A stretch of DNA of 64,000 bases from Gemmatimonadota bacterium. Lineage in GTDB: Bacteria; Gemmatimonadota; Gemmatimonadetes; Longimicrobiales; Gaopeijiaceae. Below are positions 14,850 through 52,096 of this stretch, piece after piece; position 1 is the stretch's first letter, and every line of letters starts with the position of its first letter. The position numbers and the translations under genes are program-made. Under the pieces are notes generated by a model. The model did not search any database. It was not told the DNA's origin and saw nothing but the letters and a program-made list of their open reading frames with translations. The stretch lies in NCBI GenBank assembly GCA_009838975.1, contig VXQO01000117.1:62001-126000 (forward strand), written 5' to 3'.

Positions 14850-14877
14850 GGTCGCCTCCGTCCGATGCCGGCCTGGG

Positions 14878-15135: not shown

Positions 15136-15152
15136 GGCTCAGCCAAGGCGGC

Positions 15153-16511
15153 TCAGAGCTCGCCGAGGGTGTCGATGGGAAGCCGGCCGGTGCTGCCACC
15201 GACCTTGTCCATCGGCATGTCCATCTTGTCCATCAGCGTCGCCAGAAGGTTGGCGTGCGTCGGTCCGCCCTCGTACCTGATGTGCTGCCCACCGTTCAAT
15301 TTGCCGTTGCCTCCGCCCACGACGACCAGAGGGATGTTGTCGCCGGCGTGCCGCTGGCTGTTGGAGATCCCCGACCCGTACAGCCCGGTGATCGAGTCCA
15401 GCAGCGAGCCATCCCCGTCGGGGGTCTCGCTCAGCTTGGTCAGGTGACGCGTGAAAAGCTCCACGTGGTACCGGTTGATCTTCGAGAGGTATTTCACGAT
15501 GTCCGGCCGGTTGCCGTGGTGCGATAGCGGATGCCACGCCTCGGGCACACCGATCTGCGGATACGGCCGCGCGTTGACTTCGCGCCCGATCATCATCGTC
15601 GAAACCCTGGTGATGTCCGCCTGATAGGCCAGAATCTGCATGTCCAGCAGCAGTTCCAGGTGGTCCTCCAGCGTCTCCGGAATGCCCTGTGGCTGCTCCA
15701 TGTTCGGGAGGTCGACGTCCAGTTGCTGCTCGGCCACCTGGATCCGCCGTTCGACATCCCGCACTGCCTCGGTGTACTGCTCCACGCTGCGCTGGTCCTG
15801 CGGACCCAGCTCGCGCGCCAGCGCCCGCAACTTGTCATTGACCGAGTCCAGCAGGCTCTTCTGTTGGTGCAGACGCCGCTCCCGCGGCCCGCGATCCGTG
15901 GTGCCGGTGTCGCCGAAGAGCCGCTCGAAGACGGTTCGGGGATGGTTCTCCATCGGGAGCGGCTGTGTGGGGCTCCGCCAGGAGATGGTGTGCGTGTAGG
16001 CGCAGTTAAGGATGGCACAGGTGCCGGCGTTGGGCGGGCCGTCCAGGGACAGTTCGAGGGAGCCCAGCTGGGTTTCCCTGCCCCACTCGCGCGCCAGCAT
16101 CTGGTCGATCGACTCCGCCGCGATGATGTCGGTGTTGTCCACCGCCTCGATGTCGCCGAGCGACCTCCCAATCATCCCGGTGAGGAAGCTGGTGGGACCG
16201 CCGGCATGGTTGAAGTTCCACGACGCGTTCACGCCAGTCGGAATGATGATCCTGTCCCTGAACGGCTCCAGCGGGCCCAGGATTTCGGAGAGCACGAAGT
16301 CACGGCCCTCGCCGGTCGGGGTCCAGTGGGGCATGGCCTGCCCGTTCGGCGTGTAGTAGGCGAGGAACCTGTGGGGAGACCTGCGCCTGGAGCCGCTCAC
16401 CGCCGTCAGACGGGCGGGCGTCATCGCGTCCAGGAAGGGCAGCATCAGCGCCGCTCCGGCGCCGCGAAGTACCGTCCTCCGCGAGATGTGCCTACCGGTG
16501 ATAAAGTCCAT
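15153..16511 (-). CDS. DUF1552 family Tat-exported protein (cassette 1)
   Basis: The protein has 452 residues. It begins with a Tat signal (SRRTVLRGAGAALMLPFLDA), so it is exported folded, probably with a cofactor or metal. Family landmarks shared with the two other copies in the window are the GRHISRRT start, a FSRD-like domain start (RFLAYYTPNGQAMPHW), GATSF-like loops, YTEAVRDVERRI, and the C-terminal YGSGISNSQRHAGDNIPLVVVGGGNGKLNGGQH. The fold resembles DUF1501/sulfatase-like proteins, but no activity is established. Its start lies inside the 3' end of the DUF1592 gene (20-base overlap), and the FmdB-like gene follows after 17 bases. Confidence 0.88.
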   Translation of the reverse strand: MDFITGRHISRRTVLRGAGAALMLPFLDAMTPARLTAVSGSRRRSPHRFLAYYTPNGQAMPHWTPTGEGRDFVLSEILGPLEPFRDRIIIPTGVNASWNFNHAGGPTSFLTGMIGRSLGDIEAVDNTDIIAAESIDQMLAREWGRETQLGSLELSLDGPPNAGTCAILNCAYTHTISWRSPTQPLPMENHPRTVFERLFGDTGTTDRGPRERRLHQQKSLLDSVNDKLRALARELGPQDQRSVEQYTEAVRDVERRIQVAEQQLDVDLPNMEQPQGIPETLEDHLELLLDMQILAYQADITRVSTMMIGREVNARPYPQIGVPEAWHPLSHHGNRPDIVKYLSKINRYHVELFTRHLTKLSETPDGDGSLLDSITGLYGSGISNSQRHAGDNIPLVVVGGGNGKLNGGQHIRYEGGPTHANLLATLMDKMDMPMDKVGGSTGRLPIDTLGEL

Positions 16512-19269: not shown

Positions 19270-19313
19270 ACTACCCCCAATCGAACGCCTTGAATCCGAG
19301 ACTGCATACCAAC

Positions 19314-19342
19314 ATTGTACGCTAGCGATCTTGCAGTCACAA
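19314..19342 (-). promoter_or_regulatory. sigma70-like promoter for the six-gene DUF1592/DUF1552/ankyrin operon
   Basis: On the minus strand TTGTGA (19342-19337) and TACAAT (19319-19314) are 17 bases apart; TACAAT matches five of six -10 positions. The leader to the ATG at 19269 would be about 38 bases. The divergent methyltransferase gene starts at 19367, so its own promoter must overlap this one. Confidence 0.5.
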
Positions 19343-19366
19343 GTCCACTTGAACGAAACGGGACCG

Positions 19367-20785
19367 ATGTCCGGAACGCCTGTGCGTGAAGGCACGGAGC
19401 GCGGTTCGCAGGCGCGCTTACGCGGTCTTCTGGACGCGGTCCGTTGCCCGCTGTGCTCCTCGAAGATCGACCTGGCTGCGCAGGCCGTCAGGTGCCGCAA
19501 GTGCGGGCAGGTCTACCCCCGCCTGGGGGCCATTCCGGTTCTGCTGCCCGAGCCGCTCGACTACTTCGCGTCGTGCATGCGACAGCTGGCCGGGCTGGAG
19601 GAACAGGTCGAGCGAGTGGTTCAGGATGTCGGGGAGCAACTGCGGTCGACGGAACTGCTGCCGTCCACCAGGATGCGATGCCGGATCATCATCGAGGGTA
19701 TCACCGGTCAGTTGGCCGATGTGCGCGGCATTCTCGAGCCCGGACTGCCGGCAGCGGCTCGTGCCGGTGCCGGTGGCCAGTCGGAGCGGATACCTGCGAC
19801 GCTCGACCACCTGCCCTACCTGTACCGGGACTGGGGGTGGCCACCGCAGGCGGACGGCGAGACCGAGCGCGCACTGGCCCTTGTGGAAACTCTCCTCGAA
19901 AACAGGTGTCCGGGACGAATGCTCGTAATGGGTGCCGGCGCGTGCCGCCTCGCGTACGACGTGTACCACCGACACCCCGACTCGGAACTCCTGGTCATGG
20001 ACCTCGACCCGGTCCTCTTCTCCGCCGCGCACGCCGTCACCCATGGCGAGTCCGTGACCGTTCGCGAGGCCAATCTCGAGATGGGCGACCTCGACCAGGC
20101 CGTGAAGGAGTGGGCGTTGTCGGCACCGCGGGGTCCGGTGGACGACGCACGCTTTCACTTCCTCGTGGCCGACGCCGTCGATCCCCCGCTGGCTCCCGGG
20201 ATCTTCGACACGGTGCTCACCCCGTGGTTTATCGACCAAGGACCCGAAGACGTGCGTGATTTGATCAGCACCCTCCACCGAATGCTGAAGCCGGGTGGGC
20301 GATGGGTGAACCTTGGACCGCTCAAGTACAACCTGGACGTTCCCTTCTCGCGTCGTTTCGCTCGCGAGGAGCTGTTCGACCTGGCCAAGCGCGCGGGGTT
20401 CCACGTGGGACCCTGGCACAGCGAGAGCGGGCCCTACCTGGTCTCCCAACTCAACGGTCGTGGCAAGACCGAGTGGGTGCTGGCATTCTCCGCCACGAAA
20501 CTCGAAGCGGCGGAGGAGGACTCGAGCGCTGGCAGCGGACCGCCCCCGTGGCTCCTCTTCCGGCACTTGCCCATTCCCGCGTTCGAAGGCCAGGCGCACT
20601 TCTGGTCCGAAGCGGCCATGGTTCGCATGGTGGTCTCTTCCATAGACGGACGCAGAACGCTGGATGACATAGCGGTCATGGTCTCCGAGCGTGCGCGCCA
20701 GCCCGACATCACCATGAGCCAGGTTCGTGCAGCCGTCCGCCAGTGCCTCCAGAAGGTCCACCCGGCCTGCGGAGCGGCCGGCTGA
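19367..20785 (+). CDS. three-part protein: Trm112-like zinc ribbon, N2227/carnosine-type methyltransferase, PqqD-like C-terminus
   Basis: The protein has 472 residues. The ATG at 19367 is preferred over a TTG at 19331. Residues 25-58 form a Trm112-like zinc ribbon (Cys27, Cys30, Cys43, Cys46; then YPRLGAIPVLL). Residues about 185-385 are a class I SAM methyltransferase: VMGAGACRLAYDV, then LLVMDLDP, and near 285 PWFIDQGPEDV followed by LKPGGRWVNLGPLKYN, which closely recalls the N2227 (carnosine N-methyltransferase) signature FFIDTA...LKPGG.WINLGPLLYH. The last 75 residues (VVSSIDGRRTLDDIAVMVSE) look like a PqqD/RRE-type winged helix. No signal peptide is present. The target is unknown. It is divergent from the DUF1592 operon and ends 10 bases from the convergent serine hydrolase gene. 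Confidence 0.7.
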   Translation: MSGTPVREGTERGSQARLRGLLDAVRCPLCSSKIDLAAQAVRCRKCGQVYPRLGAIPVLLPEPLDYFASCMRQLAGLEEQVERVVQDVGEQLRSTELLPSTRMRCRIIIEGITGQLADVRGILEPGLPAAARAGAGGQSERIPATLDHLPYLYRDWGWPPQADGETERALALVETLLENRCPGRMLVMGAGACRLAYDVYHRHPDSELLVMDLDPVLFSAAHAVTHGESVTVREANLEMGDLDQAVKEWALSAPRGPVDDARFHFLVADAVDPPLAPGIFDTVLTPWFIDQGPEDVRDLISTLHRMLKPGGRWVNLGPLKYNLDVPFSRRFAREELFDLAKRAGFHVGPWHSESGPYLVSQLNGRGKTEWVLAFSATKLEAAEEDSSAGSGPPPWLLFRHLPIPAFEGQAHFWSEAAMVRMVVSSIDGRRTLDDIAVMVSERARQPDITMSQVRAAVRQCLQKVHPACGAAG

Positions 20786-32582: not shown

Positions 32583-32665
32583 GAGGCCTCCTCCCCGCTA
32601 CATTGGGGCACCGGGATCGTCGGTCGGTCGCGGGGAGATTGCCGACCGGAGCCCGAATCGTCAAT

Positions 32666-32685
32666 ACTAAACAATATTGTTTAGC
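32666..32685. repeat. palindromic element, copy 3 (ACTAAACA-ATAT-TGTTTAGC), between divergent genes
   Basis: The same arms and spacing as copies 1 and 2, with one mismatch in the outer right arm and a different centre. It lies in the 165-base divergent region, about 83 bases from the dimethylformamidase-like start and 62 bases from the DUF3500 start, an ideal place for an operator controlling both. Confidence 0.75.
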
Positions 32686-32747
32686 ATTTGGCGCGCCTGA
32701 CGTGACCAGCGACCCATAGACCGGACCCGAAGGAGGCCGACGGCGCA

Positions 32748-33908: not shown

Positions 33909-34099
33909 GAGCGCGCCGCGCCCAGGCTCAACACGCTGGGGCACCAGACATCAGGCCAGGACGCGGGGTGGCAAGCTGTCGAGTCGATGCTCTTGCATCC
34001 ATACACGTATACGTCCCACCTTGTCCCGGGAGGCACCAGGTCACCTGCAAGCAGTCTGGAGTCCTGTTCCCCTTCGGTAGCCGAAGCAAAGGAGGCCCC

Positions 34100-37042: not shown

Positions 37043-37080
37043 CCCGCTGAGCGATGCGGACTCCACGGGAGAAACTGACC

Positions 37081-39018: not shown

Positions 39019-40809
39019 CTAGCAGCTCACGCAACGATGGTTGTTCTTCGCCCCCAGGCGTTCGAGTAGCGCCACGGTCTCGACAAACGGCTGAATCCTC
39101 TGCACCGGGCCGTTGGCCATGTCCACGGTGGTCTGGCCGCTGCGGGCCACGGCGGTGACGTCGGCACCCTTCTCGACCAGATAGAGAATCATCTCGTTAT
39201 CGCCGCGGGCGGCGGCGTGGTGGACCGGGGTGTAGCCGTTGAGGTCACGCGCGTTGACGTCGGCGCCGAGTTCCTCCACCAGGAACCGCATCGTGGGCAT
39301 CCAGCCGTCCGGTGCATGACGGTGGGAGTTGCCCGCGAATCCCTGGCCGTAACCGACTCCGGCCGCGGCATGGATCGGATAGACTGCGGGGCCCCCTATG
39401 GGAACGGGAGGCAGCCCGGAGTGATCGGTCTCGTCGCGGGAACCGAAGCTCCGCCGCGGGACCCTGATGGTCGGGAGGCCGGGGTCGGCCCCGTACTCCA
39501 GAAGCAGCTTCATGGCGGGTACGTCGGTCGCGTGCGCGGCGCGCCAGAAGGCTGTAGCGCCGGTGCGGTCCACTCCCAGCAGGTCGCGGTTGTAGGTGGT
39601 GAACCAGAGGGTGCGCTCGAGGCGGGCGTTCACATCCGCGCCGGCTTCCAGAAGGGCACGCATCAGCTTCAGGTAGCCCGTCTCCTGTTGCTCGTATTCG
39701 AGCGGCTGGGGATGCCGGGCCTTCGGCGCCCACTGCATGTTGAGGACCGCGTAGAGTGGCGCTGCCCCGGCGTCACTGGTGAGGTTGGGGTCGGCCCCAC
39801 GCTCCAGGAGTTGAACAACGAGATCGAAGTAGCCGTTGATCGCGGCCATCAGCATCGGCGTGGTGTTGTCCGCCGCGCTGGGCAGGTCGATGTCGACGCC
39901 GCGGTCCAGCAGGGCCATCACGGTGGACATGTGACCCTCACGGGCCGCGAGATGGATCGCCGAGAGGCCGCCATGCTTGCCGACAAGATCGGCGTAGTTG
40001 AGGGGGATGGGTTCCCCCGTCTGGCGCCGTGCTTCCAACGCTTCCTGGGCAGCCTGTCGCGCCTGCTCCTCGCGCGAAGTGAGCGGGGCGGTCGACCCCT
40101 GCGGCGTACGGCCCGCCACGCCCGACTCGACCGGGTAGCTCAAAACGTCCGCGCCGCCGCGCAGCGCCGCGATCTCCGTCCGCCGCCGCCGCTCCGAAAA
40201 CCGGTCGAGGATGTCGCGCTCGACGAGGTCCATAACCTGGGCGGTGATGGTCGGGTCGGCGCCCGCCTCGACAAGCGCCACGACCGCGTTCGTACGCCCG
40301 AGCGCCGCCGCGAACATGAGGGGGGTCTGTCCCCACTCGGGCTCCATCGCGTCCACCCGAGCACCATGGTCGAGCAGCGCGGTGACTGCCCGCACATCCC
40401 CCGACGCCGCGGCGAAATGCAGCGGCGTAGCCCCCGTTTCGGTCACCGCCTCCACATCCGCTCCCGCATCCGCCAGGACCGCGACGATCTCGCCGTTGCC
40501 TTCCCTGCCCGCAACGTGGAGGGCCGTGTGGGCGCCGATGCGGGTCGCCGCTTCCAGATCGGCACCGGCGCCGATGAGCATCCGAGCGATCTCCGAGCTG
40601 CCGTTCAGCGCCGCCCAGTGCAGCCCGGTCATGCCATCGCCATGGGGGGCATTCACGTCGGCGCCTTCAGCCAGCAGGGCACGCACGGCCGCGACATCGT
40701 CCCGCATGGCCGCGTCGGCGACCGGGGAATCGATGCGCGGATCCCCGGCCAGGCCGACCAGCGCGGTCAGGAGAACAACTCCCAGCCAGTCCACGCGCAA
40801 CATCCTCAT
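39019..40809 (-). CDS. exported ankyrin repeat protein with C-terminal CVSC (cassette 3)
   Basis: The protein has 596 residues with a signal peptide (MRMLRVDWLGVVLLTALVGLAG). N-terminal ankyrin units (residues about 30-190) start with SPVADAAMRDDVAAVRALLAEGADVN. A charged coiled segment (about 205-270, DRFSERRRRTEIAAL, REEQARQAAQEALEARRQ) separates them from the C-terminal units. The signature GPAVYPIHAAAGVGYGQGF is shared with the cassette 2 protein, and the chain ends NNHRCVSC. The start overlaps the DUF1552 stop (ATGA). A periplasmic, possibly redox-active or metal-binding adaptor for the DUF1592/DUF1552 proteins is plausible but unproven. Confidence 0.9.
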   Translation of the reverse strand: MRMLRVDWLGVVLLTALVGLAGDPRIDSPVADAAMRDDVAAVRALLAEGADVNAPHGDGMTGLHWAALNGSSEIARMLIGAGADLEAATRIGAHTALHVAGREGNGEIVAVLADAGADVEAVTETGATPLHFAAASGDVRAVTALLDHGARVDAMEPEWGQTPLMFAAALGRTNAVVALVEAGADPTITAQVMDLVERDILDRFSERRRRTEIAALRGGADVLSYPVESGVAGRTPQGSTAPLTSREEQARQAAQEALEARRQTGEPIPLNYADLVGKHGGLSAIHLAAREGHMSTVMALLDRGVDIDLPSAADNTTPMLMAAINGYFDLVVQLLERGADPNLTSDAGAAPLYAVLNMQWAPKARHPQPLEYEQQETGYLKLMRALLEAGADVNARLERTLWFTTYNRDLLGVDRTGATAFWRAAHATDVPAMKLLLEYGADPGLPTIRVPRRSFGSRDETDHSGLPPVPIGGPAVYPIHAAAGVGYGQGFAGNSHRHAPDGWMPTMRFLVEELGADVNARDLNGYTPVHHAAARGDNEMILYLVEKGADVTAVARSGQTTVDMANGPVQRIQPFVETVALLERLGAKNNHRCVSC

Positions 40810-42200
40810 ATCGAGAGCGGGAAGGTCCCGGTGCTGTCGCCGAAGCTCCTCATGTCGTCCATCCCCAGCTTGTGCATCAGGCTGAGCATGACGTTGGCCA
40901 TCGGCGTGCCGGCGTCGGCACGCAGGTGCAGGTTTCCGTCCATGCGGCCGTTCGCTCCACCGACCACGAAGAGCGGGCAGCGCTTGTGGTTGTGCACGTT
41001 CGAGTCGCCCATCGGCGAGCCGTAGATCACCATGGTCTTGTCGAGCAGGTTTCCGTCGCCCTCCTGGATGCTGGCCAGCCGGTCCAGGAAGTACGGGACC
41101 AGCCCCACGTGATACCGGTTGATCTCGGCGAACTCAAGGACGGCGTCGGGCCTGCCGCCGTGGTGTGACGACGGATGGAAACCCTTGTCGACACCGCTCT
41201 CCGGGTAGACGCGGCTGGAGGCGTCCCGGCCCATCTTGAACGAGAAGATGCCCGTCACGTCCGCCTGGAAGGCGAGCGCTTGCAGGTCGAACATCAGCTT
41301 GACGTGCTCGTCGAAGGAGTCGGGGACTCCGGCGGGCGCACCCGGCAGTTCGCGCTCTTCCCCGCTCTCGTTGCGCGCCACCACGCGCGCGATCCGGCGC
41401 TCAAGCTCCCGGATGTCGTTCAGATAGCGATCCACGCGGCGTCCGTCCACCGGATCGAGCTCCCGCTTGAGCGCGCGCACCTCGCCCACAATGAAGTCGA
41501 GGATACTGGCGCTTGCCCGGCGGCGGGCTTCCCGGGCTTCGGGCGTACCGCCTGCTCCGAAGAGCTGGTCAAAGGCGACCCGCGGGTCCCGCACCATGGG
41601 CAGAGGCTGGTCCGGCGCCGACCAGGAGATGGTGTCGGTGTAGACGCACGCGTAGCCGTAGGCGCAGCCGCCGGCCTGATCCACATTCTCGATGCAAAGC
41701 TGCATGGACGGGATCGGCGTGTCCTGGCCGAACCGCTGGGCGTAGAACTGGTCCAGAGAAGTACCGACCCAGACATCCGAACTCTCGGTCTGCTTGGGGT
41801 GGGACTGGGTCAGGAAGGTCGCGCTGGAGCGGAAGTGGTCGCCCCCGATCTCCTTGGGCTTTCTGGCCTCGGCGCCCTCGACGTCGGTGTCGCTGACGAT
41901 CGTGAGGTAGTCCCGGTACGGCTCGAGCGAACTGAGGACGCTGGGACCGAAGTCGAAGCCGCGTCCGGTCTCCGGGGGCGACCAGAGGTGCTCAGTCGCT
42001 CCCCACGCGTTGCTGCCCGCCGAGCCGTGCACCATCTCGATGGCGACGAGGCGCGTGCGGTCGAGCGCCGTGCGCGCGCGCGTGACCGCCCACCGCTCCC
42101 GGGCGGGCGCCATGGCATCCAGGAACGGCAACGCGACACTCGCACCAACGCCGCGCAGGAAGGTCCGGCGGGGCAGGTGCCGTCCCGTAATGAGATGCAT
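40806..42200 (-). CDS. DUF1552 family Tat-exported protein (cassette 3)
   Basis: The protein has 464 residues. Tat signal PRRTFLRGVGASVALPFLDA after MHLITGRHL. Closely similar to the cassette 2 copy: LVAIEMVHGSAGSNAWGATEHLW, FRSSATFLTQSHPKQTESSDVWVGTSLDQ, CIENVDQAGGCAYGYACVYTDTISW, and a C-terminus with YGSPMGDSNVHNHKRCPLFVVGGANGRMDG. Conserved Cys in the GGCAYGYAC loop, not present in cassette 1, may bind metal or form disulfides. It starts five bases after the DUF1592 stop and is coupled to the ankyrin gene. No catalytic activity is known for the family. Confidence 0.9.
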   Translation of the reverse strand: MHLITGRHLPRRTFLRGVGASVALPFLDAMAPARERWAVTRARTALDRTRLVAIEMVHGSAGSNAWGATEHLWSPPETGRGFDFGPSVLSSLEPYRDYLTIVSDTDVEGAEARKPKEIGGDHFRSSATFLTQSHPKQTESSDVWVGTSLDQFYAQRFGQDTPIPSMQLCIENVDQAGGCAYGYACVYTDTISWSAPDQPLPMVRDPRVAFDQLFGAGGTPEAREARRRASASILDFIVGEVRALKRELDPVDGRRVDRYLNDIRELERRIARVVARNESGEERELPGAPAGVPDSFDEHVKLMFDLQALAFQADVTGIFSFKMGRDASSRVYPESGVDKGFHPSSHHGGRPDAVLEFAEINRYHVGLVPYFLDRLASIQEGDGNLLDKTMVIYGSPMGDSNVHNHKRCPLFVVGGANGRMDGNLHLRADAGTPMANVMLSLMHKLGMDDMRSFGDSTGTFPLSI

Positions 42201-42205
42201 CGTGC

Positions 42206-44728
42206 TCAGCCTCCGTTTCCGTTCGCGGGTTCCTCGTCGACGACGGCGGGAGCTGCCTTCAAGAGGAAGGCGTCGCTGGTAGCCACGCCCACGATGAACG
42301 AGGAGACCCGGTAGTCCTGTTCAGCGGCCATGCGCGCGATCCGGCGCACTGCCGACATGTCATAATACTCCAGGCGGCGTCCGAGCGCATACGCCATGAG
42401 GTTTTCGGTAAAGGTGCGAACCAGCGGCTGGGGTCGCTTCAGGAGCGCAGCGCGCAGCTCGGAGGGCGACGCGATGGGTGTGCCGTCGTAGAAGTCGCTC
42501 GCCGCGTCGATCGCCACGCCCTGATCCCTGATGCGCCACGCTCCCGTCACGTCGAAGTTCTCCAGCGCCAGCCCGATCGGGTCGATCATGCGGTGGCAGG
42601 AGTTGCAGGTCGGGTTGGCGGCGTGCATCTCGAGCCGCTCCCGCACAGTCAGGAATCGACCGTCCTCCACTGCCTCCTCTTCCAATTCGGGAACGTCGGG
42701 TGGAGGGGGCGGAGGCGGAGTGCCCAGCAGGACCTCCATCACCCACTTGCCCCGCAGAACGGGCGAGGTCCGGCCCGCGTGCGAGGTGAGGGTAAGGATG
42801 CTCCCGTGGCCCAGAATCCCGCGGCGCTCGTCGTGCAGTTGGTCCACGCGCCGGAAACGCTCTCCGGCCACGTCCGGAATCCCGTAGTGACGCGCCAGCC
42901 GCTCGTTTACGAAGGTGTAGTCCGCCGTATACAGGTCCATGATCGACCGGTCTTCACGGACCAGGTTGTCGAAGAAGGTCTCGGTTTCCTCTACCATCGC
43001 GCGCTTCAGCGGCTCGTCGAAGTCCGGGTTGACGCGCACGTCGGGCTGGATCTTCTCCAGGTCCTGCAGGCGCAGCCACTGTCCGGCGAATCGCGTCGAA
43101 AGCGCCGCGGAGCGCGGGTCGCGGAGCATTCGGCGCACCTGCTCCTCAAGCACGGCCGGGTCGGCGAGGCGCCCTTCTTCCGCTACCGCCATCAGCTCCC
43201 CGTCTGGCCCCGATCCCCAGAGGAAGAACGACAACCGCGCGGCCAGATCGTGGGCGCCGAGCCGGTAGGCGCCAGCCTGACCCGTGCCCGTACCGCCAGC
43301 CTCCGCACCGGCCACCCTCGGCTCCTCGAAACGGAAGACGAAGTGCGGGCTGGCCAGAATGCCTTCGAGCGCCATTCGCACCCCGCCCTCGAAGCCCTCG
43401 ACTTCGGCGCCCGCATCGTACAGCCCCATCAGCGCGATCACGTTGCCCTCGGTCAGCGGGCGTCTGTAGGCCCGGGTCGCCAACCGGGTGACGATTTCAC
43501 GCGCGCAGCGCCGTGCCTCGGCCTCGGGCGCGCCGGGGTCCGGACGGCAGCTGAACACCGCCTGGCGGCTGGGGGTGTCGGACACACCCTGCGGGTCGTA
43601 CGGGCCGCCGATCGCCAGGTCGCGCAGGTGCGGGAGGACCGTGAAACCGTAGCTGCCCGCGATGCTGGTGCTGGCCAGCGACCAGTCGTGCGGCGAGATC
43701 AGGTCCTGCAGCGGCCCTTCGTAGCGCCGGATGAACGCCGCCGACACCTGTCTCGGGCCCGCACGCACGAATATGCGGCCGGACCGGATATTGACGCCGT
43801 CCGGGTCCGACGTGTGCATCCACCGGTTGACCTCGAGAAGCGCCACCCGCTCACCGTCGACCGAGATATCCAGCAGCTCGGGTTCGCCGTCTTCCGTGTG
43901 CAGCGCGTTACGTCCATTGCCGACGAGCGCACCGGTGGTCTCGTGATGGAACGAGACGCGGAAGGCGTAGTAGCCGTCCGCCGGGAAGTTGTGCAGCACC
44001 GAAACCCCACCCCGAGTGCCGTAGGGGGCTCCCGGCACCCGCTCGTTCTGCGAATCCCAGCGCGACACGCGGTAGGTCGCCTCGCTCGCACTTACGTGGG
44101 GATCGCCAAGGGCCAGCCGGCTGATCTCGGCGGCCGCCCGCAGGTAGCCGTCGGTCAGCGTCGCAGACAGCAGTTGGGCGTCCGCAATGTTGTCGAAGTT
44201 CGCGCTCTTGGTGTCCAGGGGAAGATAGGCGCCCGCGTCGATCTCGAGATCCAGCAGGTCGCGGACCGATGCCTGGTATTCGGCCCGGTTGAGGCGCTGG
44301 AAGGTTCGGCGCCCCGGGTTGGGATTCTCCGCGGCGGCCCGATCCATCTGCCCCTCCAACGACTCGACAAGCTCGGTCAGGTCCTCCTCTTCGGGTCTCC
44401 GGTTGCCCGGTGGAGGCATCAGGCCCGCGCGCAGCTTGCGGATGACCCTCTCGGCCAGTTCGCCGTTGGCTGGCGCGTTGGCCGCGTCGAAGTCCTCCAG
44501 GGACATGTTTCCGAGCAGGCGGCGCTCGTTGTGACAACGGACGCAGTACTGCTGGATCACTTCGTTCTCGGTGGCGGCACCAAAGGCGGACGCCGACGCA
44601 GGGTATGAGTGGCCGGTCAGCGGCGTCGATGCAGCCGCAAACTGCGAACCCGGAACCGCGTCACGCGAAACCCCCAGGCCGGCGAGGACCAGGCCTGCCG
44701 CAGCGAGGGGAGCCGCCTGCTTCAGCAT
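42206..44728 (-). CDS. DUF1592 family protein with two CxxCH haem motifs (cassette 3)
   Basis: The protein has 840 residues with a signal peptide (MLKQAAPLAAAGLVLAGLGV). Cytochrome-like motif Cys62-Val-Arg-Cys65-His66 is followed by NERRLLGNMSLEDFDAANAP, DUF1587 (FQRLNRAEYQASVRDLLDL), DUF1595 (LATRAYRRPLTEG), DUF1592 (AARLSFFLWGSGPDGEL), DUF1588 (RRGILGHGSILTLTSHAGRTSPVLRGKW) and CNSCHRMIDPIG starting at Cys708, with DUF1585 at the end (YALGRRLEYYDMSAVRRIA). The two haem motifs are at equivalent positions in all three copies. It begins seven bases after the ankyrin gene of the previous cassette. Confidence 0.9.
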   Translation of the reverse strand: MLKQAAPLAAAGLVLAGLGVSRDAVPGSQFAAASTPLTGHSYPASASAFGAATENEVIQQYCVRCHNERRLLGNMSLEDFDAANAPANGELAERVIRKLRAGLMPPPGNRRPEEEDLTELVESLEGQMDRAAAENPNPGRRTFQRLNRAEYQASVRDLLDLEIDAGAYLPLDTKSANFDNIADAQLLSATLTDGYLRAAAEISRLALGDPHVSASEATYRVSRWDSQNERVPGAPYGTRGGVSVLHNFPADGYYAFRVSFHHETTGALVGNGRNALHTEDGEPELLDISVDGERVALLEVNRWMHTSDPDGVNIRSGRIFVRAGPRQVSAAFIRRYEGPLQDLISPHDWSLASTSIAGSYGFTVLPHLRDLAIGGPYDPQGVSDTPSRQAVFSCRPDPGAPEAEARRCAREIVTRLATRAYRRPLTEGNVIALMGLYDAGAEVEGFEGGVRMALEGILASPHFVFRFEEPRVAGAEAGGTGTGQAGAYRLGAHDLAARLSFFLWGSGPDGELMAVAEEGRLADPAVLEEQVRRMLRDPRSAALSTRFAGQWLRLQDLEKIQPDVRVNPDFDEPLKRAMVEETETFFDNLVREDRSIMDLYTADYTFVNERLARHYGIPDVAGERFRRVDQLHDERRGILGHGSILTLTSHAGRTSPVLRGKWVMEVLLGTPPPPPPPDVPELEEEAVEDGRFLTVRERLEMHAANPTCNSCHRMIDPIGLALENFDVTGAWRIRDQGVAIDAASDFYDGTPIASPSELRAALLKRPQPLVRTFTENLMAYALGRRLEYYDMSAVRRIARMAAEQDYRVSSFIVGVATSDAFLLKAAPAVVDEEPANGNGG

Positions 44729-44735
44729 CGCGTGT

Positions 44736-46544
44736 TCAACAGGAAACGCAGTTGTGGTTGTTTACCGCGCCGAGACTTTCGAGCAGAGCAATGGTCTCCG
44801 GGAACGGCTGGATCCGCTGCACCGGGCCGTTGGCCATATCCACCGTCGTCTGCCCGCGTCTGCTGACGAGAGTGACGTCGGCGCCCTGCTCCACCAGATA
44901 GAGGATCAGTTCGTTGTCGCCACGGGCGGCGGCGTGGTGAATCGGGCTGAATCCCTCAAGGTCGCGGGCGTTCACATCGGCACCCAGCTCCTCGACGAGG
45001 TAGCGGACCGCCGGTACCCAGCCATCGGGCACGTGGCGGTGCGCATTCGCCGCGAACCCCTGACCATAGCCGACCCCCGATGCCGCGTGGATCGGGTAGA
45101 CAGCCGGACCGCCCACGGGTACGGGCGGCAGGCCCGAGTGGTCGACCTCTTCGCCGCCGCCCCGGCCGAACCGCCGCGAAGGGACTCTCTCGGTCGCCAT
45201 GGAAGGGTCGGCTCCGCGAGCGACAAGCAGCTGCATCGCCTCCACGTCGAGCGCGTAGGCGGCCCGCCAGAACGGCGTGGCTCCCTTCGCGTCGATCTGG
45301 AGCAGGTCGAAGTTGTAGGACATGAACCAGAGGTGCCTGGTGAGCCGCGCGTTCGGGTCGGCACCGGCCGCCAGCAGCTTCTCCATGACCTCGAGGTAGG
45401 TGTGGTCCTGCTGCATGTAGATGTGCTGCTGCGGGTAGCGCGACTTGGGTGCCCAGTGGGTGTTGATCGCGGCAAAGAGCGGCGTGGCGCCGGCGTGGCT
45501 CGCAATCGTGGGGTCGGCACCGAGCTCCAGGAACCGCATGGCCAGGTCGTAGTGCCCGTTGATGGTGGCCATGAGGATCGGGCTGGTTCCGTCGCCCGCA
45601 CTCACCTGGTTGATGTCCGCGCCCCCGTCGATCAGCGCCAGCGCCGTCTCGGCGTGCCCCTCGCGAACCGCGTGCAGCAACGCGGTGAGGCCGCCGTGGC
45701 CGCCCACGAGCTCGCCGTAGGACAGCGGCTCGGGCTCCTCGATCATGCGCGTCTCGGCTTCCGCCGCCGATGCAGCTTCGGCCAGTTCGCGCCGGCGGCT
45801 TTCCTCCTCGTGCTGACGGCGCACCTCGGCTGCGACCTCAGGTCCCCAGGGCTGCCCCTCCCGGATTCGCCGGTTGCGCTCGGCACGCTCGATCCGGTCG
45901 TAGACGGCACGCGACGTGACATCCATCACCCTGGTGTGGATCGCGGGATCGGCGCCGGCATCCAGCAACGCGGCGACGACCTCGGTCCTCCCCTTCGACG
46001 CCGCGAAGATCAGCGGAGTCTGCGCCCAGGACTCCTCGGCCGCGTTCACGTCGGCCCCGGCCGCCACCAGGGCCCAGACGGCCCGCTCGCTCCCTGACGC
46101 CGCCGCAAGGTGCAGGGGGCGCGCGCCGCCACCCACAGTGATCGCCGCGTCGGGTTCGGCACCGGCACCGAGGAGGACCTCGGCGACCTCCCCCGCACCG
46201 GCTTGCGCCGCCACGTGAAGCGGCGTGTAGCGCCCGATGCGGGTCCCGGCACCGATGTCCGCGCCGGCCTCCACAAGCATTCGGGCAAGCCCCGGATCCC
46301 GGTTGCTTGCCGCCCAGTGCAGGGCCGTCATGCCGTCACCCTGGGCCACGTTGACATCCGCTCCGTCGGCGATGAGGGCACGGACCGCAGCCGCGTCGCC
46401 ACGCATGGCCGCATCGGCCACGGGACTGTCGTGACCAACCCCGGCGGGGAGCAGCAGCGCCAGCAACAACGCCGAGACCCAGCCGCTCGCACGCAGGGCG
46501 CCGGTACTCGTTGCCGGTGGCCGGGGGTGACGCGTCGCGCCCAT
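44736..46544 (-). CDS. exported ankyrin repeat protein with C-terminal CVSC (cassette 2)
   Basis: The protein has 602 residues; GGAGG precedes the ATG at 46544, and the signal peptide runs to about residue 37 (ALLLALLLPAGVGHD). The layout equals that of its cassette 3 paralogue: N-terminal ankyrin units from SPVADAAMRGDAAAVRALIADGADVN, a charged linker (EEESRRRELAEAASAAEAETR), C-terminal units with VYPIHAASGVGYGQGFAANAHRHVPDG, and the end NNHNCVSC. The conservation of the last residues in two otherwise diverged proteins suggests that the Cys pair matters. It follows DUF1552 by 13 bases. Confidence 0.9.
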   Translation of the reverse strand: MGATRHPRPPATSTGALRASGWVSALLLALLLPAGVGHDSPVADAAMRGDAAAVRALIADGADVNVAQGDGMTALHWAASNRDPGLARMLVEAGADIGAGTRIGRYTPLHVAAQAGAGEVAEVLLGAGAEPDAAITVGGGARPLHLAAASGSERAVWALVAAGADVNAAEESWAQTPLIFAASKGRTEVVAALLDAGADPAIHTRVMDVTSRAVYDRIERAERNRRIREGQPWGPEVAAEVRRQHEEESRRRELAEAASAAEAETRMIEEPEPLSYGELVGGHGGLTALLHAVREGHAETALALIDGGADINQVSAGDGTSPILMATINGHYDLAMRFLELGADPTIASHAGATPLFAAINTHWAPKSRYPQQHIYMQQDHTYLEVMEKLLAAGADPNARLTRHLWFMSYNFDLLQIDAKGATPFWRAAYALDVEAMQLLVARGADPSMATERVPSRRFGRGGGEEVDHSGLPPVPVGGPAVYPIHAASGVGYGQGFAANAHRHVPDGWVPAVRYLVEELGADVNARDLEGFSPIHHAAARGDNELILYLVEQGADVTLVSRRGQTTVDMANGPVQRIQPFPETIALLESLGAVNNHNCVSC

Positions 46545-46557
46545 CGAGCCTCCTCGC

Positions 46558-47940
46558 CTACACCGTCAGCGAAAAGTCGGACGTACTGTTGCCGAACTTC
46601 TTCATATCGTCCATGCCGAGCTTGTGAGCCAGGCCCAGCATGACGTTGGCCATCGGCGTTCCGGGCGTCGCGCGCAGATGGAGGTTGCCGTCCAGCCCGC
46701 CGTTCGCGCCGCCGACCACGAACAGCGGACAGCGCTTGTGGTTGTGGATGTTCGGATCCCCCATGGGCGACCCGTAGACGATCATCGTCCGGTCAAGCAG
46801 ATGCGCGTCTCCATCCATCGTGCTCCCGAGCTTCTCCAGGAAGTAGGGGAGCATCCCGACGTGATATCGGTTGATCTGGGCGAAGTCGGTGATGTTGCCC
46901 TCGTTGCCGCCGTGGTGCGAAGCGGGGTGGAAGGGCTTCTCGACGCCGCTCTCGGGGAAGATCCGGGCCGACGAGTCACGTCCCATCTTGAAGGAGAACA
47001 CCCGGGTCACGTCGGATGCGAAGGCCAGCGCCTGCAGGTCGAACATGAGTTCCACATGCTCCCGGAACGAGTCGGGCACGCCGGCCGGCGCCTCGGGCAG
47101 TTCGCGCGCCTCGCCGCTGGCGTTCTGCGCCTCCACGCGTTCGATCCTCCGTTCGAGTTCGCGCACATGCTCGAGGTATCGGTCGAGGCGGACCATATCG
47201 GCCGGCCCCAACTGGCGCTTCAGCTGCGAAACCCTGCCTGTAATGAAGTCCAGGATGCTCCTGTTCACTCGTCGGCGCGCCGCCCGCTGCTCCGGGCTGC
47301 CCCCGGCGCCGAAGAGCTGGTCGAAGGCCACGCGCGGATCGCGCACCATCGGCAGCGGGTCGGTCGGCGACGCCCAGCTGATCGTGTCGGTGTAGACACA
47401 GGCGTACCCGTACGCGCACCCTCCAGACTGGTCCACGTTCTCGATGCACAGCTGCATCGACGGGATCGGCGTGTCCTGTCCGAAGCGCTTCGCGAACATC
47501 TGGTCGAGCGACTCCCCGACGAAGATGTCGGACCCCTCCGTCTGCCGGGGATGCGACTGGGTCAGGAAGGTCGCGCTGGAGCGGAAGTGGTCGCCGCCGA
47601 TCTCCTTCGGCTTCTTGGCCTCGGCGGGCTCGATGTCCGTATCGCTGATGATCGTCAGGTAGTCACGGAACGGCTCCAGCGGGCTGAGCGAACTCGGGCC
47701 CAGGTCGAAGTCGCGGCCGGTTGCCGCCGGCGACCAGTAGTTCTGCGTCCTGCCCCAGGCGTTGCTGCCGGCCGCTCCGTGCACCATCTCGATCGCGACG
47801 AGCCGCGTCGGGCCCTCGGCCGCCGCGGCCCAGCCCCGTCCGGCCGGGACCATTGCGTCGAGGAAGGGCAGCGAAATCGAGGCGCCGACGCCCTTGAGGA
47901 AGGTTCGGCGGGGAATCGCTTTACCGGTGATGTATTGCAT
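46558..47940 (-). CDS. DUF1552 family Tat-exported protein (cassette 2)
   Basis: The protein has 460 residues. Tat signal PRRTFLKGVGASISLPFLDA after MQYITGKAI. Shares with cassette 3 the segments MVHGAAGSNAWGRTQNYW, SSATFLTQSHPRQTEGSDIFVGESLDQ, NVDQSGGCAYGYACVYTDTISW and YGSPMGDPNIHNHKRCPLFVVGGANGGLDG. The mature part resembles the DUF1501 group, whose members are Tat-exported in planctomycetes and related phyla. It lies 29 bases after the DUF1592 stop and 13 bases before the ankyrin gene. Confidence 0.9.
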   Translation of the reverse strand: MQYITGKAIPRRTFLKGVGASISLPFLDAMVPAGRGWAAAAEGPTRLVAIEMVHGAAGSNAWGRTQNYWSPAATGRDFDLGPSSLSPLEPFRDYLTIISDTDIEPAEAKKPKEIGGDHFRSSATFLTQSHPRQTEGSDIFVGESLDQMFAKRFGQDTPIPSMQLCIENVDQSGGCAYGYACVYTDTISWASPTDPLPMVRDPRVAFDQLFGAGGSPEQRAARRRVNRSILDFITGRVSQLKRQLGPADMVRLDRYLEHVRELERRIERVEAQNASGEARELPEAPAGVPDSFREHVELMFDLQALAFASDVTRVFSFKMGRDSSARIFPESGVEKPFHPASHHGGNEGNITDFAQINRYHVGMLPYFLEKLGSTMDGDAHLLDRTMIVYGSPMGDPNIHNHKRCPLFVVGGANGGLDGNLHLRATPGTPMANVMLGLAHKLGMDDMKKFGNSTSDFSLTV

Positions 47941-47969
47941 ATTCGCTCCGTTCTATCGGCTTTTCGCCG

Positions 47970-50429
47970 TCAGTCGTCCTTCCCGGGGCCCGCCGGCTCC
48001 TCCACCACCACATCGGCCTTCGACATCCGGAAGGGGTCGCTCCGCACCACTTCCTTCACGAACGCCGCAAGCCGGTAGTCGCCTTCACCCGCCGCAGTCG
48101 CCACGCGCCGCACCGCCGGCATGTCGTAGTACTCGATCCTCCGCCCCAGCGCGTAGGCCATCAGGTTCTCGGTGAACGTCCTGACCAGCGACTCCGGGCG
48201 CCGCAACAACGCGGCGCGCAGGTCGGCGGGCCCGTTCAGCGGCGTCCCGTCGTAGAGTTCGCCGAGCGTTTCGACGAGCGTGCCCGTGTCGCGGACGCGC
48301 CAGGTCCCCGTGACGTCGTAGTTCTCAAGGGCGATTCCGATGGGGTCGATGAACCGGTGGCAGGAATTGCAGGTCGGATTGGCCGCGTGTTGTTCGAGTC
48401 GCTCCCGCACCGTGAGAAAGCGGCCGTCACTCGCCTCGGCGGTCGCGTCGAGTTCCGGAACGTCTGGCGGCGGCGGGGGCGGGGGTGTTCCCAGCAACAC
48501 TTCCATCACCCACTTCCCCCTCAGCACGGGCGAGGTGCGATTGGCGTGGGAGGTAAGGGTGAGGATGCTGCCGTGGCCGAGGATCCCGCGCCTGGCGTCA
48601 TCGGTGTACCGCACCCGGCGGAAGTGCTCGCCGGACACCCCGGGAATGCCGTAGTGCCTGGCCAGCCGCTCGTTCATGTACGAAAAGTCGGCGGTGAGGA
48701 AGTCCTCCAGGGTGCCGCCCTCGCGCAATAGGGCGTTGAAGAATGTGACCGTCTCACGCTTCATGTCGCGCGCCAACTGGTCGTAGAAGTCCGGATAGCG
48801 CAACGCGTCGGGGTGGACCTTGTCGAGATCCTGGAGGCGCAGCCACTGGGCGGCGAAGCGCGTGCCCAGCGCCTCGGCCCGCGGATCTGCGAGCATGCGC
48901 TCCACCTGTGCCTCGAGAATGTCCGGATCGGACAGCCCGCCCTCGCCTGCGACGTCGACAAGCTCCTCATCGGGAAGGCGTCCCCAAAGGAAGAACGAAA
49001 GTCGCGAGGCCAGCGCGATATCGCTGATCGGGCGCATCCCTCCCGGGGCCGTGGCGCCTGCCGCGGCTTCCTCGAAGCGGAAGACGAAGTCGGGGCTCGC
49101 GAGGATCCCCTGGAGGGCCGTCCGCACGCCGATGTCGAAGCCGCCCTCGGCGGTGCCCTGTTCGTACAGGCCCATGAGCCCGTCTACCTCTGTTCCGGTG
49201 ACCGGACGGCGGAAGGCACGAGCACCCAGTTCGCCGATGATCCGGCGCGCGCAGTCGGGCTCCTCTGCGGCGGTGGCCGGGCGGCAGGTCATCACCCGCT
49301 CCCACGCCGGCGTGGGCGTCACCCCCGTGATGTCGTACGGACCCCCGATCGTGAGATCGCGCAGGTGTGGCACCCCGGTGATCCCGTACGAGTATCCGAT
49401 CTTCTTGTCGGCGAGCGACCACTCGTGCGGCGAGGTCAGGTCCTCCACCGGCCCCTCGGTCACCTTGATGAAGGCAGCGGAGACGCGGTGGGGCCCGGCT
49501 GTCACCGGGATGCGGTCGGTCACGACTTCGACGCCGTTCGGGTCCTGCCGGTGCATCCACCGGTCGAGCGGGATCAGCGCGACCCGCTCCCCGTCGATCG
49601 ACACCTCGACCTCTTCGTCGAAGGGCGCCGTCTGGCCGAAGAAGTTGCCGGTCGACTCGTGCTGGAACGCCAGCCGGAAGAAGTACTCGCCGTCGGCCAC
49701 GAAGTTGTGGATGACGGAGATCCCGCCGCGGGTGCCGAAAGGCGTCCCGGGCACGTGTTCACGCTGTTCGGCGTACCGTGACACCTCGTAGGTGGCCTCT
49801 GCCGGAGTCGCGTTGGCGTCCCCCAGGGCCAGCCGGCTCACCTCGCTCGCGGCCGTCAGATACGAATCGAGCAGCGTGGCCGACAGGTTCTGCACGTCGG
49901 CGATGTTGTCGAAGCCCGCGCTGACCGTCTCGTTGGGAAGGTAGGCCGACGCGTCGATCTCGATCCCCAGCAGATCGTGGATCGCCGCCGCGTATTCCGC
50001 GCGGTTCAGCCGCTGGAAGGTGCGGCTTCCAGGGTTGGGATTGCGCGCGGCGGCCGCGTCGAGGTCCCCTTCGAGCCGCGTTACGAAGGCGGTGACCTCC
50101 TCTTCCGGCGGGCGAGCGACGCCCGGGGGCGGCATCATCCCGGCGCGCAGCTTGCGGATCATCTTTTCCGCAATCGGCGCGTTGGCAACCGGGTTCGCGG
50201 CATCGAAGTCCTCGAGCGACATGTTGCCGAGAAGGCGCCGCTCGTTGTGGCAGCGGACGCAATACTGCTGGACAAGGTCGTCGCTTGCGGCGGCCACGCT
50301 CGCACCCGCGAAGTCGCCCACATGGAGAAAAGCCCCTCGCTGATCGCCAACGGGGGGCGCGTCGGGCCTCGTAGCGAGGATCGACGGGACAGCCACTGCG
50401 AGTAGAAGCGCGGGGGCGAGTTTCGTCAT
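47970..50429 (-). CDS. DUF1592 family protein with two CxxCH haem motifs (cassette 2)
   Basis: The protein has 819 residues, a signal peptide (MTKLAPALLLAVAVPSILA) and the haem-type motif Cys57-Val-Arg-Cys60-His61. The domain series is DUF1587 (FQRLNRAEYAAAIHDLLGI), a carbohydrate-binding-like insert with RGGISVIHNFVADGEYFFRLAF, DUF1595 (ARAFRRPVTGTEV), DUF1592 (ASRLSFFLWGRLPDEELV), DUF1588 (RRGILGHGSILTLTSHANRTSPVLRGKW), a second motif CNSCH at Cys687-His691, and DUF1585 (YALGRRIEYYDMPAVRRVA). It is the first gene of the six-gene tandem operon. Confidence 0.9.
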   Translation of the reverse strand: MTKLAPALLLAVAVPSILATRPDAPPVGDQRGAFLHVGDFAGASVAAASDDLVQQYCVRCHNERRLLGNMSLEDFDAANPVANAPIAEKMIRKLRAGMMPPPGVARPPEEEVTAFVTRLEGDLDAAAARNPNPGSRTFQRLNRAEYAAAIHDLLGIEIDASAYLPNETVSAGFDNIADVQNLSATLLDSYLTAASEVSRLALGDANATPAEATYEVSRYAEQREHVPGTPFGTRGGISVIHNFVADGEYFFRLAFQHESTGNFFGQTAPFDEEVEVSIDGERVALIPLDRWMHRQDPNGVEVVTDRIPVTAGPHRVSAAFIKVTEGPVEDLTSPHEWSLADKKIGYSYGITGVPHLRDLTIGGPYDITGVTPTPAWERVMTCRPATAAEEPDCARRIIGELGARAFRRPVTGTEVDGLMGLYEQGTAEGGFDIGVRTALQGILASPDFVFRFEEAAAGATAPGGMRPISDIALASRLSFFLWGRLPDEELVDVAGEGGLSDPDILEAQVERMLADPRAEALGTRFAAQWLRLQDLDKVHPDALRYPDFYDQLARDMKRETVTFFNALLREGGTLEDFLTADFSYMNERLARHYGIPGVSGEHFRRVRYTDDARRGILGHGSILTLTSHANRTSPVLRGKWVMEVLLGTPPPPPPPDVPELDATAEASDGRFLTVRERLEQHAANPTCNSCHRFIDPIGIALENYDVTGTWRVRDTGTLVETLGELYDGTPLNGPADLRAALLRRPESLVRTFTENLMAYALGRRIEYYDMPAVRRVATAAGEGDYRLAAFVKEVVRSDPFRMSKADVVVEEPAGPGKDD

Positions 50430-51893: not shown

Positions 51894-51901
51894 CTTCCGC
51901 T

Positions 51902-52096
51902 TCAAAGTATGATCGCCGCCGGCAGCAGGACGGCGTAGCCGAGGACCAGGAGAACCGGTGCGAGCGTGATCGAGCCCTGGCCCAGCATGTAGTAGCCCAG
52001 AGCGATCGTCGCCAATCCGCCGACGGCGAACCACAGGTTGATCTTCGAGAACTTCAGCGTCGGTTCGGAGCCGCGCTTCCTTCGTTGTCGCGCCAT
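51902..52096 (-). CDS. small two-helix membrane protein, DUF3098-like
   Basis: The protein has 64 residues from the ATG at 52096. A basic N-terminus (MARQRRKRGSEPTLKFSKIN) is followed by two transmembrane helices (LWFAVGGLATIALGYYML and LAPVLLVLGYAVLLPAAIIL) joined by a short GQGSIT turn. This layout, with a basic N-terminus, FSKINLWF and a GYYML helix end, resembles DUF3098 proteins, which have no known function. It lies between a peptidase-MA gene and the M28 gene. Confidence 0.65.
   Translation of the reverse strand: MARQRRKRGSEPTLKFSKINLWFAVGGLATIALGYYMLGQGSITLAPVLLVLGYAVLLPAAIIL

What the first reader, a model, noticed from the sequence alone, without database searches (positions are those of the whole stretch)
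39019..50429. Tandemly duplicated secreted DUF1592-DUF1552-ankyrin cassette
Two three-gene units with the same order (5694 and 5710 bases, gaps no larger than 29 bases) are arranged head to tail on one strand. Every product is exported: DUF1592 by a Sec signal with two CxxCH motifs, DUF1552 by a Tat signal, and ankyrin by a Sec signal. Paralogues are well diverged but the order has been kept, so the three proteins probably work together as an extracytoplasmic complex. I know of no experimental description of such a trio; DUF1552 and DUF1592 have been noted as neighbours in planctomycetes and related phyla, but their function is unknown.
Basis: partly seen in the sequence, partly recalled or inferred. 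Interest (0 to 1): 0.82.

Follow-up and report, generated by a model that had tools for sequence, protein, structure and literature searches.

The report
Secreted cytochrome, sulfatase-fold, ankyrin trio
Two neighbouring copies of an exported three-protein set (a two-haem cytochrome with a sugar-binding-like domain, a sulfatase-fold protein and an ankyrin-repeat protein) belong to a widely conserved bacterial gene unit of unknown chemistry, and the ankyrin third partner, not described in the papers I could search, suggests that many 'host-manipulating' ankyrins of sponge bacteria may really be parts of this redox machinery.

Summary
Six minus-strand genes at 39019-50429 form two head-to-tail units DUF1592 > DUF1552 > ankyrin, and all six N-termini look like export signals. 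It is not a local oddity: the genome has seven DUF1592-DUF1552 pairs, six with the ankyrin directly downstream and the seventh with one 1.9 kb away. In 65 of 68 Gemmatimonadota loci chosen by DUF1552 alone, the trio is intact and in this order. The three gene trees agree, and the tandem predates the split of at least 11 relatives. In Acidobacteriota a more distant DUF1552 branch also carries a secreted ankyrin, in three different arrangements, which argues for a functional link rather than inherited operon order. One Novosphingobium plasmid also has the trio. DUF1552 is predicted to have an alkaline-phosphatase/sulfatase fold with a histidine cluster instead of the sulfatase signature; DUF1592 has two CxxCH motifs and a CBM36/6/35-like module. 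Best reading: a periplasmic haem-c redox system, perhaps acting on a glycan or glycoside, with the ankyrin as dedicated partner. A physical complex, the substrate and the chemistry are unproven. The DUF1592-DUF1552 pair is known from planctomycetes and Verrucomicrobia; the ankyrin coupling appears undescribed in the literature searched.

The parts
47970..50429 (-). Unit A DUF1592-type di-haem cytochrome c (DUF1587/1595/1592/1588/1585), 819 aa, N-terminal hydrophobic signal
50247..50261 (-). first haem motif CVRCH (residues 57-61) of unit A cytochrome
   Evidence: C57, C60, H61 invariant in 45 sequences
48357..48371 (-). second haem motif CNSCH (residues 687-691) of unit A cytochrome
   Evidence: C687, C690, H691 invariant
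49323..49814 (-). CBM36/6/35-like beta-sandwich module (residues about 206-369) inside unit A DUF1592 protein
   Evidence: AlphaFold2 model; VIA-align Z up to 8.9 over 106 residues
46558..47940 (-). Unit A DUF1552 (HXXSHH) protein, 460 aa, twin-arginine signal, predicted alkaline-phosphatase/sulfatase fold
44736..46544 (-). Unit A secreted ankyrin-repeat protein, 602 aa
44739..44750 (-). C-terminal CVSC (CxxC) tail of unit A ankyrin
   Evidence: CxxC in the last 14 residues of 146 of 161 relatives of this class
42206..44728 (-). Unit B DUF1592-type di-haem cytochrome c, 840 aa
44531..44545 (-). first haem motif CVRCH (residues 62-66) of unit B cytochrome
40806..42200 (-). Unit B DUF1552 protein, 464 aa, twin-arginine signal
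39019..40809 (-). Unit B secreted ankyrin-repeat protein, 596 aa
39022..39033 (-). C-terminal CVSC tail of unit B ankyrin
16492..19500 (-). Third DUF1592 cytochrome of the window, divergent (37% to unit A; the ORF start is probably too early)
15153..16511 (-). Third DUF1552 of the window, divergent (40% to unit A)
11741..13246 (-). Ankyrin-repeat protein of the third unit, 1.9 kb downstream of its DUF1552, without the CxxC tail

Best explanation
The trio is one functional unit: a periplasmic, haem-c-dependent redox system with three dedicated components, present here as a tandem pair of paralogous units. (1) The DUF1592 protein is exported by Sec, receives two c-type haems and carries a carbohydrate-binding-like module, so it can hold a substrate and move electrons. 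(2) The DUF1552 protein is exported folded by Tat. It has an alkaline-phosphatase/sulfatase-type fold whose usual catalytic signature is replaced by a conserved histidine cluster (H118, H338, H342, H399 of unit A), most simply a metal site, and it is the likely substrate-handling or catalytic subunit. (3) The ankyrin protein is exported by Sec and is the dedicated scaffold or assembly partner of the other two. Multiple copies per genome most likely serve different substrates; glycans or glycosides are the leading guess, with electrons passed through the cytochrome towards the respiratory chain. Shown here: the families, export signals, conserved linkage in several arrangements, co-inheritance and predicted folds. 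Inferred: haem loading, the metal, physical association, direction of electron flow and substrate class.
For: Linkage: all 7 DUF1592-DUF1552 pairs of this genome have an ankyrin, 6 directly adjacent; 65 of 68 DUF1552-anchored Gemmatimonadota loci hold the intact trio in the same order; 74 of 75 ankyrin-anchored loci have DUF1552 next to the ankyrin. In six genomes 64 of 76 ankyrin genes lie beside a DUF1552 gene, and 64 of 67 DUF1552 genes have an ankyrin. Independent arrangements: in distant Acidobacteriota pairs 18 of 24 have an ankyrin within 250 bases, placed downstream, divergently upstream, or upstream on the same strand. Co-inheritance: 135 trios, tree-distance correlations 0.84-0.87 (permuted maximum 0.18), 44 strongly supported splits shared by all three trees. 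Chemistry: two CxxCH, with invariant Met99 in a cytochrome-like MPP context; CBM36/6/35-like module, Z 8.9; Tat motif and AP-superfamily fold, Z about 15 over 244-288 residues; invariant or near-invariant histidines. The genome has TatC and cytochrome c assembly genes. In Sphingobium the same pair is followed by cytochrome c and cytochrome b561, which fits electron transfer to or from quinones; in Planctomyces it is followed by a 3-keto-disaccharide hydrolase-family gene, which fits sugar oxidation.
Against: No interaction, haem or activity data exist here. Flanking genes are not conserved: TonB/SusC in 11 and SusD in 7 of 54 dereplicated units. The carbohydrate link therefore rests on a predicted module plus one Planctomyces neighbour, while the Sphingobium neighbours look like steroid or side-chain catabolism. 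The DUF1552 model is of medium confidence (pLDDT 75; 110-140 and 170-191 poor). The Planctomyces and Sphingobium pairs lack an ankyrin, so it is not needed in every lineage.
Confidence: 0.5

Rival explanations
1. The ankyrin is a periplasmic stability or maturation factor for the haem protein and not a stoichiometric subunit, as AnkB is for the catalase KatB in Pseudomonas aeruginosa.
For: There is a direct precedent for a periplasmic ankyrin encoded beside a haem enzyme and needed for its full activity (Howell et al. 2000, cited in PMC2830190). The gene is last in the unit, and its position varies in Acidobacteriota.
Against: Nearly every DUF1552 copy keeps its own ankyrin and the ankyrin co-diverges with its unit, whereas a general maturation factor could be shared between paralogous units.
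Confidence: 0.25
2. The unit is basically hydrolytic: DUF1552 is an active alkaline-phosphatase-superfamily hydrolase (phospho- or sulfoester), and the cytochrome is a binding partner.
For: AP/sulfatase fold; sulfatases were noted beside PSCyt genes in freshwater Verrucomicrobia (PMC5615132).
Against: No PF00884 match and no conserved C-x-P-x-R sulfatase signature in the family alignment; the conserved residues are a different histidine set. Haem motifs are conserved in 137 of 141 partners.
Confidence: 0.12
3. The ankyrin is a host-interaction effector of sponge symbionts that merely sits in the same operon.
For: Ankyrins of these phyla have been counted as host-association proteins in sponge microbiomes (PMC8163846); some of the closest relatives are probably sponge-derived MAGs (from isolate names, not verified).
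Against: The same trio occurs in a Novosphingobium from soil, in Bacterium HR33 and in a groundwater Gemmatimonadota assembly (L097). Linkage to the cytochrome genes is near one-to-one and is kept through rearrangement.
Confidence: 0.07
4. The linkage only reflects whole-operon duplication and transfer without functional dependence.
For: The trees show that units duplicate and descend as blocks.
Against: Three different gene arrangements in Acidobacteriota, and the fact that most ankyrin genes of these genomes are linked, are hard to get from inherited order alone.
Confidence: 0.05

Closest known systems
Planctomycete-type PSCyt3/PSD cytochromes (DUF1592 proteins) paired with DUF1552 in Planctomycetes and Verrucomicrobia
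   Same: Same domain series and direct adjacency to DUF1552; PSCyt3 genes are reported next to one unknown gene family in Verrucomicrobia (PMC5615132).
   Different: The pairs read or annotated elsewhere have no ankyrin. Here a secreted ankyrin is a near-obligate third gene, and the unit is multi-copy.
PSCyt2/PSD1 (DUF1549-DUF1553) with DUF1501
   Same: An analogous pairing of a planctomycete cytochrome with a Tat-exported partner (partly from my own knowledge; PMC5615132 reports PSCyt2 next to another unknown family). DUF1552 and DUF1501 share a homologous C-terminal part (hhalign probability 96%, E 3e-9).
   Different: Different domain families and a different histidine motif; no ankyrin is described.
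AnkB-KatB of Pseudomonas aeruginosa
   Same: A periplasmic ankyrin encoded beside a haem enzyme and needed for its optimal activity (PMC2830190).
   Different: The partner there is a catalase. Here it is a di-haem c cytochrome plus DUF1552, and the ankyrins carry a C-terminal CxxC tail.
LacABC lactose 3-dehydrogenase with DUF1080 hydrolase in Caulobacter
   Same: Periplasmic oxidation of glycosides next to a PF06439 protein (PMC9007349); a PF06439 gene lies beside the Planctomyces DUF1592-DUF1552 pair.
   Different: The trio holds none of the Lac components; only the context is comparable, in one relative.
Alkaline phosphatase / sulfatase superfamily
   Same: Predicted fold of DUF1552 (Z about 15).
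   Different: No sulfatase Pfam match or signature; a different conserved histidine set.

Membership tests
Planctomycete-type DUF1592 (PSCyt3/PSD) cytochromes | DUF1587-DUF1595-DUF1592-DUF1588-DUF1585 domain series | tested here: met
   all five over the curated cut-off in both proteins
Planctomycete-type DUF1592 (PSCyt3/PSD) cytochromes | c-type haem motifs CxxCH | tested here: met
   two in each; two in 137 of 141 relatives
Planctomycete-type DUF1592 (PSCyt3/PSD) cytochromes | covalently bound haem | not testable with these tools
   needs haem stain or spectra; cytochrome c assembly genes are present
DUF1552 (PF07586, HXXSHH) | Pfam match over cut-off and the HxxSHH motif | tested here: met
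   264 and 286 bits against cut-off 30; H338-x-x-S-H-H
Alkaline phosphatase superfamily | core fold | tested here: met
   VIA-align Z 14-15, 241-288 residues, rmsd 3.7-5.7, on a model of pLDDT 75
Type I sulfatase (PF00884) | PF00884 match and C/S-x-P-x-R nucleophile signature | tested here: not met
   no PF00884 hit; no conserved C-x-P-x-R in the alignment
AnkB-KatB type pair | exported ankyrin next to a haem protein | tested here: met
AnkB-KatB type pair | partner is a catalase | tested here: not met
   partner is the DUF1592 cytochrome
CBM36/6/35-like module | beta-sandwich fold | tested here: inconclusive
   Z up to 8.9 over about 106 residues; sugar binding not tested

The most novel reading that the evidence does not exclude
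In Gemmatimonadota and Acidobacteriota, including sponge symbionts, most ankyrin-repeat proteins are not host-manipulating 'eukaryote-like' effectors. They are dedicated periplasmic subunits of a previously unrecognised, multi-copy haem-c oxidoreductase family whose catalytic partner is an alkaline-phosphatase-fold protein repurposed with a histidine metal site.
Probability: 0.35. Interest if true: 0.8.

Novelty: new variant of a known kind. Interest (0 to 1): 0.62.

Why it matters
DUF1552/DUF1592 pairs are highly amplified genes of unknown function: 36-37 DUF1552 copies were found in single Acidobacteriota genomes. A conserved third partner and predicted folds give a concrete, testable unit. 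The near one-to-one coupling of ankyrin to DUF1552 (64 of 76 ankyrin genes in six genomes) also bears on an open question. Ankyrin enrichment in sponge symbionts of these phyla has been read as host manipulation although few of the lineages have the usual secretion systems (PMC8163846); Sec export to the periplasm as a cytochrome partner would explain that.

Tried and rejected
Conserved flanking genes to identify a substrate: none; only SusC/SusD in a minority. Sequence search for solved structures of DUF1552 and DUF1592: no credible match. Fold search for the helical remainder of DUF1592: only the CBM-like part gave matches; this does not show the rest is a new fold. Co-variation of the CxxC tail with residues of DUF1552 (F119, D185 and others): real in counts but only 2-3 changes on the tree, mostly one clade, so no weight is given. 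Papers naming DUF1552 together with DUF1592: none held. Sphingobium steroidal-glycoalkaloid and bile-acid papers: no mention of these genes. Promoter and terminator scan: nothing above shuffled expectation. 'Gammaproteobacteria' as a further host class was rejected: those six records are about 94-99.8% identical to genomes placed in the window's own family. My first ankyrin signal-peptide heuristic used a wrong anchor and was replaced (versus 36).

Full report
WHAT IS THERE. Six genes on the minus strand, read from 50429 down to 39019, are DUF1592, DUF1552, ankyrin, DUF1592, DUF1552, ankyrin with gaps of 29, 13, 7, 5 and -4 bases. Pfam confirms the domain series DUF1587-1595-1592-1588-1585 in both cytochrome proteins, HXXSHH/DUF1552 in both middle genes and ankyrin repeats in both last genes. 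Each cytochrome has CVRCH near its N-terminus and CNSCH near residue 690-710. The DUF1552 proteins begin with a twin-arginine signal (PRRTFLKG / PRRTFLRG). The ankyrins have a hydrophobic N-terminal stretch and end exactly in CVSC. A third, more divergent pair lies at 15153-19500 of the same window, with an ankyrin at 11741-13246.

IN THE SAME GENOME. PF07586 and PF07631 each occur seven times, always as neighbours. Six pairs are followed directly by an ankyrin of the same family and the seventh has one 1.9 kb away. One DUF1592 copy (L025) is broken in the draft by a run of N in its proline stretch. Only two other ankyrin genes were found in the genome.

IN RELATIVES. Seventy-five ankyrin-anchored loci were fetched from 477 matches in a collection of species genomes. 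In 74 the DUF1552 gene is directly upstream on the same strand; the exception starts at a contig end. To avoid choosing by ankyrin, I searched 61 Gemmatimonadota genomes for PF07586. It occurs in 21 of them, so the family is patchy. Of 68 loci read around those genes, 65 hold the trio in the same order. Two lack a recognisable DUF1592 and one has the ankyrin 1.8 kb away. Over all fetched sequence, 178 of 182 genes of this DUF1552 class show the order DUF1592 > DUF1552 > ankyrin; some contigs were fetched twice, and 135 distinct complete trios remain after removing duplicates.

A MORE DISTANT BRANCH. Acidobacteriota genomes carry up to 36-37 DUF1552 genes, most of a second class about 38-46% identical to the window's. 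Of 24 such pairs read away from contig ends, 18 have an ankyrin gene within 250 bases: downstream on the same strand, divergently upstream, or upstream on the same strand. In one of these genomes 33 of the 35 listed ankyrin genes lie within 3.5 kb of one of 36 DUF1552 genes, with about 3 expected. Adding five Gemmatimonadota genomes, 64 of 76 ankyrin genes and 64 of 67 DUF1552 genes are coupled. A complete Novosphingobium plasmid also has the trio. A Planctomyces plasmid has the pair plus a PF06439 gene, and Sphingobium plasmids have the pair plus cytochrome c and cytochrome b561; neither has an ankyrin.

HISTORY. Trees of the three families over 135 units agree: distance correlations are 0.84-0.87, and 44 strongly supported splits are common to all three, with few conflicts. 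Upstream units and downstream units of 11 tandem loci form two separate clades with full support in all three trees, so the tandem arose once, as a block, before these genomes split. Export signals and haem motifs are kept throughout: 137 of 141 cytochromes have two CxxCH, 159 of 160 DUF1552 proteins have a Tat-like motif, and 144 of 147 ankyrins have the N-terminal hydrophobic stretch. The C-terminal CxxC tail is in 146 of 161 ankyrins of the main class and in none of 29 of the second.

STRUCTURE. The DUF1552 model (pLDDT 75) matches alkaline-phosphatase-superfamily structures at Z about 15 over 244-288 residues, with Foldseek in agreement. Its C-terminal part is homologous to DUF1501. No sulfatase Pfam match or signature is present. 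Instead H118, H338, H342 and H399 are conserved across nearly all members, down to 23-25% identity (numbers are one lower because its reference lacked the first residue). I infer a metal site, but the tools did not give residue-level superposition with known metal ligands. The DUF1592 model (pLDDT 83) holds a CBM36/6/35-like beta sandwich at residues about 206-369 (Z up to 8.9); the helical rest found no match, which says nothing about novelty. Neither protein has a relative of known structure by sequence.

MECHANISM. Shown: family membership, export signals, conserved linkage in several arrangements, co-inheritance and predicted folds; TatC and cytochrome c assembly genes are present in the genome. 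Inferred: the haems are attached; DUF1552 carries a metal and handles the substrate; the cytochrome passes electrons to or from the respiratory chain, for which the b561 neighbour in Sphingobium is the best hint; the ankyrin holds or matures the other two, for which AnkB-KatB is the precedent (PMC2830190). Substrate: a glycan or glycoside is favoured by the CBM-like module, by SusC/SusD next to the window's unit (window 33968-38409) and by the PF06439 neighbour in Planctomyces, because that family is tied to periplasmic 3-keto-glycoside cleavage (PMC9007349). But flanks are not conserved, and the Sphingobium context looks more like steroid or side-chain catabolism, so the substrate is open.

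KNOWN AND NEW. PSCyt3-type genes next to an unknown family are reported for Verrucomicrobia (PMC5615132); I identify that family as DUF1552 from general knowledge and from the Planctomyces plasmid. No paper in the held library names DUF1552 and DUF1592 together or ties planctomycete cytochromes to ankyrin in this sense. The third partner, its near one-to-one coupling and the fold assignments are therefore new as far as I could search; most subscription journals and preprints are not held. Sponge-microbiome work counts ankyrins of these phyla as host-association proteins and notes the lack of matching secretion systems (PMC8163846); the present data offer a plainer reading.

LIMITS. Export was judged by motif and hydrophobicity, not by a trained predictor. 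Most genomes are MAGs, and submitter names are unreliable: six 'Gammaproteobacteria' loci are about 94-99.8% identical to Gemmatimonadota of the window's own family, and one is labelled Euryarchaeota. I therefore claim only Gemmatimonadota, Acidobacteriota and one alphaproteobacterial plasmid; a Woeseiaceae-labelled contig (L086) is left open. Ankyrin counts were assembled by hand from listed matches; for the Acidobacteriota genome the list was cut, so a few weak ankyrin genes may be missing.

Noticed in passing
L028-L102, L133-L192; window 39022-39033 and 44739-44750: The secreted ankyrins of the main class end in a conserved CxxC, usually as the last four residues (NNxxCxSC). It resembles a haem motif that stops before the histidine. 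Function unknown.
   Followed up: partly
window 33968-38409: A SusC-type TonB receptor and a SusD gene on the plus strand, convergent with the trio; SusC/SusD occur near a minority of other trios.
   Followed up: partly
window 50562-52034: M28 peptidase with PDZ domain directly upstream of the first DUF1592 gene on the same strand.
   Followed up: no
window 11741-19500: A third, divergent DUF1592-DUF1552 pair whose ankyrin is separated by another gene or gap; the same arrangement is seen in a relative (L143).
   Followed up: partly
L255 11983-17516 and L256 9093-14530: In Sphingobium plasmids a shorter DUF1592-DUF1552 pair is followed by cytochrome c (c' in L256) and cytochrome b561, preceded by genes without Pfam match, beside TonB receptors and steroid-type catabolic genes.
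   Followed up: partly
L254 7834-14081: In a Planctomyces plasmid the cytochrome is split into two genes (PSCyt1-DUF1587 and DUF1592), followed by DUF1552 and a 3-keto-disaccharide hydrolase-family gene.
   Followed up: partly
L043, L055, L066, L075, L098, L100; L068: Records titled Gammaproteobacteria are about 94-99.8% identical to Gemmatimonadota of the window's family; L068 is titled Euryarchaeota although it carries a Gemmatimonadota-type trio. Probably mislabelled bins.
   Followed up: partly
window 30447-33908: A DMFA2_C-domain protein (N,N-dimethylformamidase beta-subunit-like) and, near it, a DUF3500 protein.
   Followed up: no
G092 (Acidobacteriota): A genome with 59 matches to DUF1501, the counterpart of DUF1552, showing a similarly large expansion of that family.
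   Followed up: no
L241, L251, L252: Very divergent DUF1592-DUF1552 pairs (DUF1552 profile scores about 100-127) without ankyrin.
   Followed up: no
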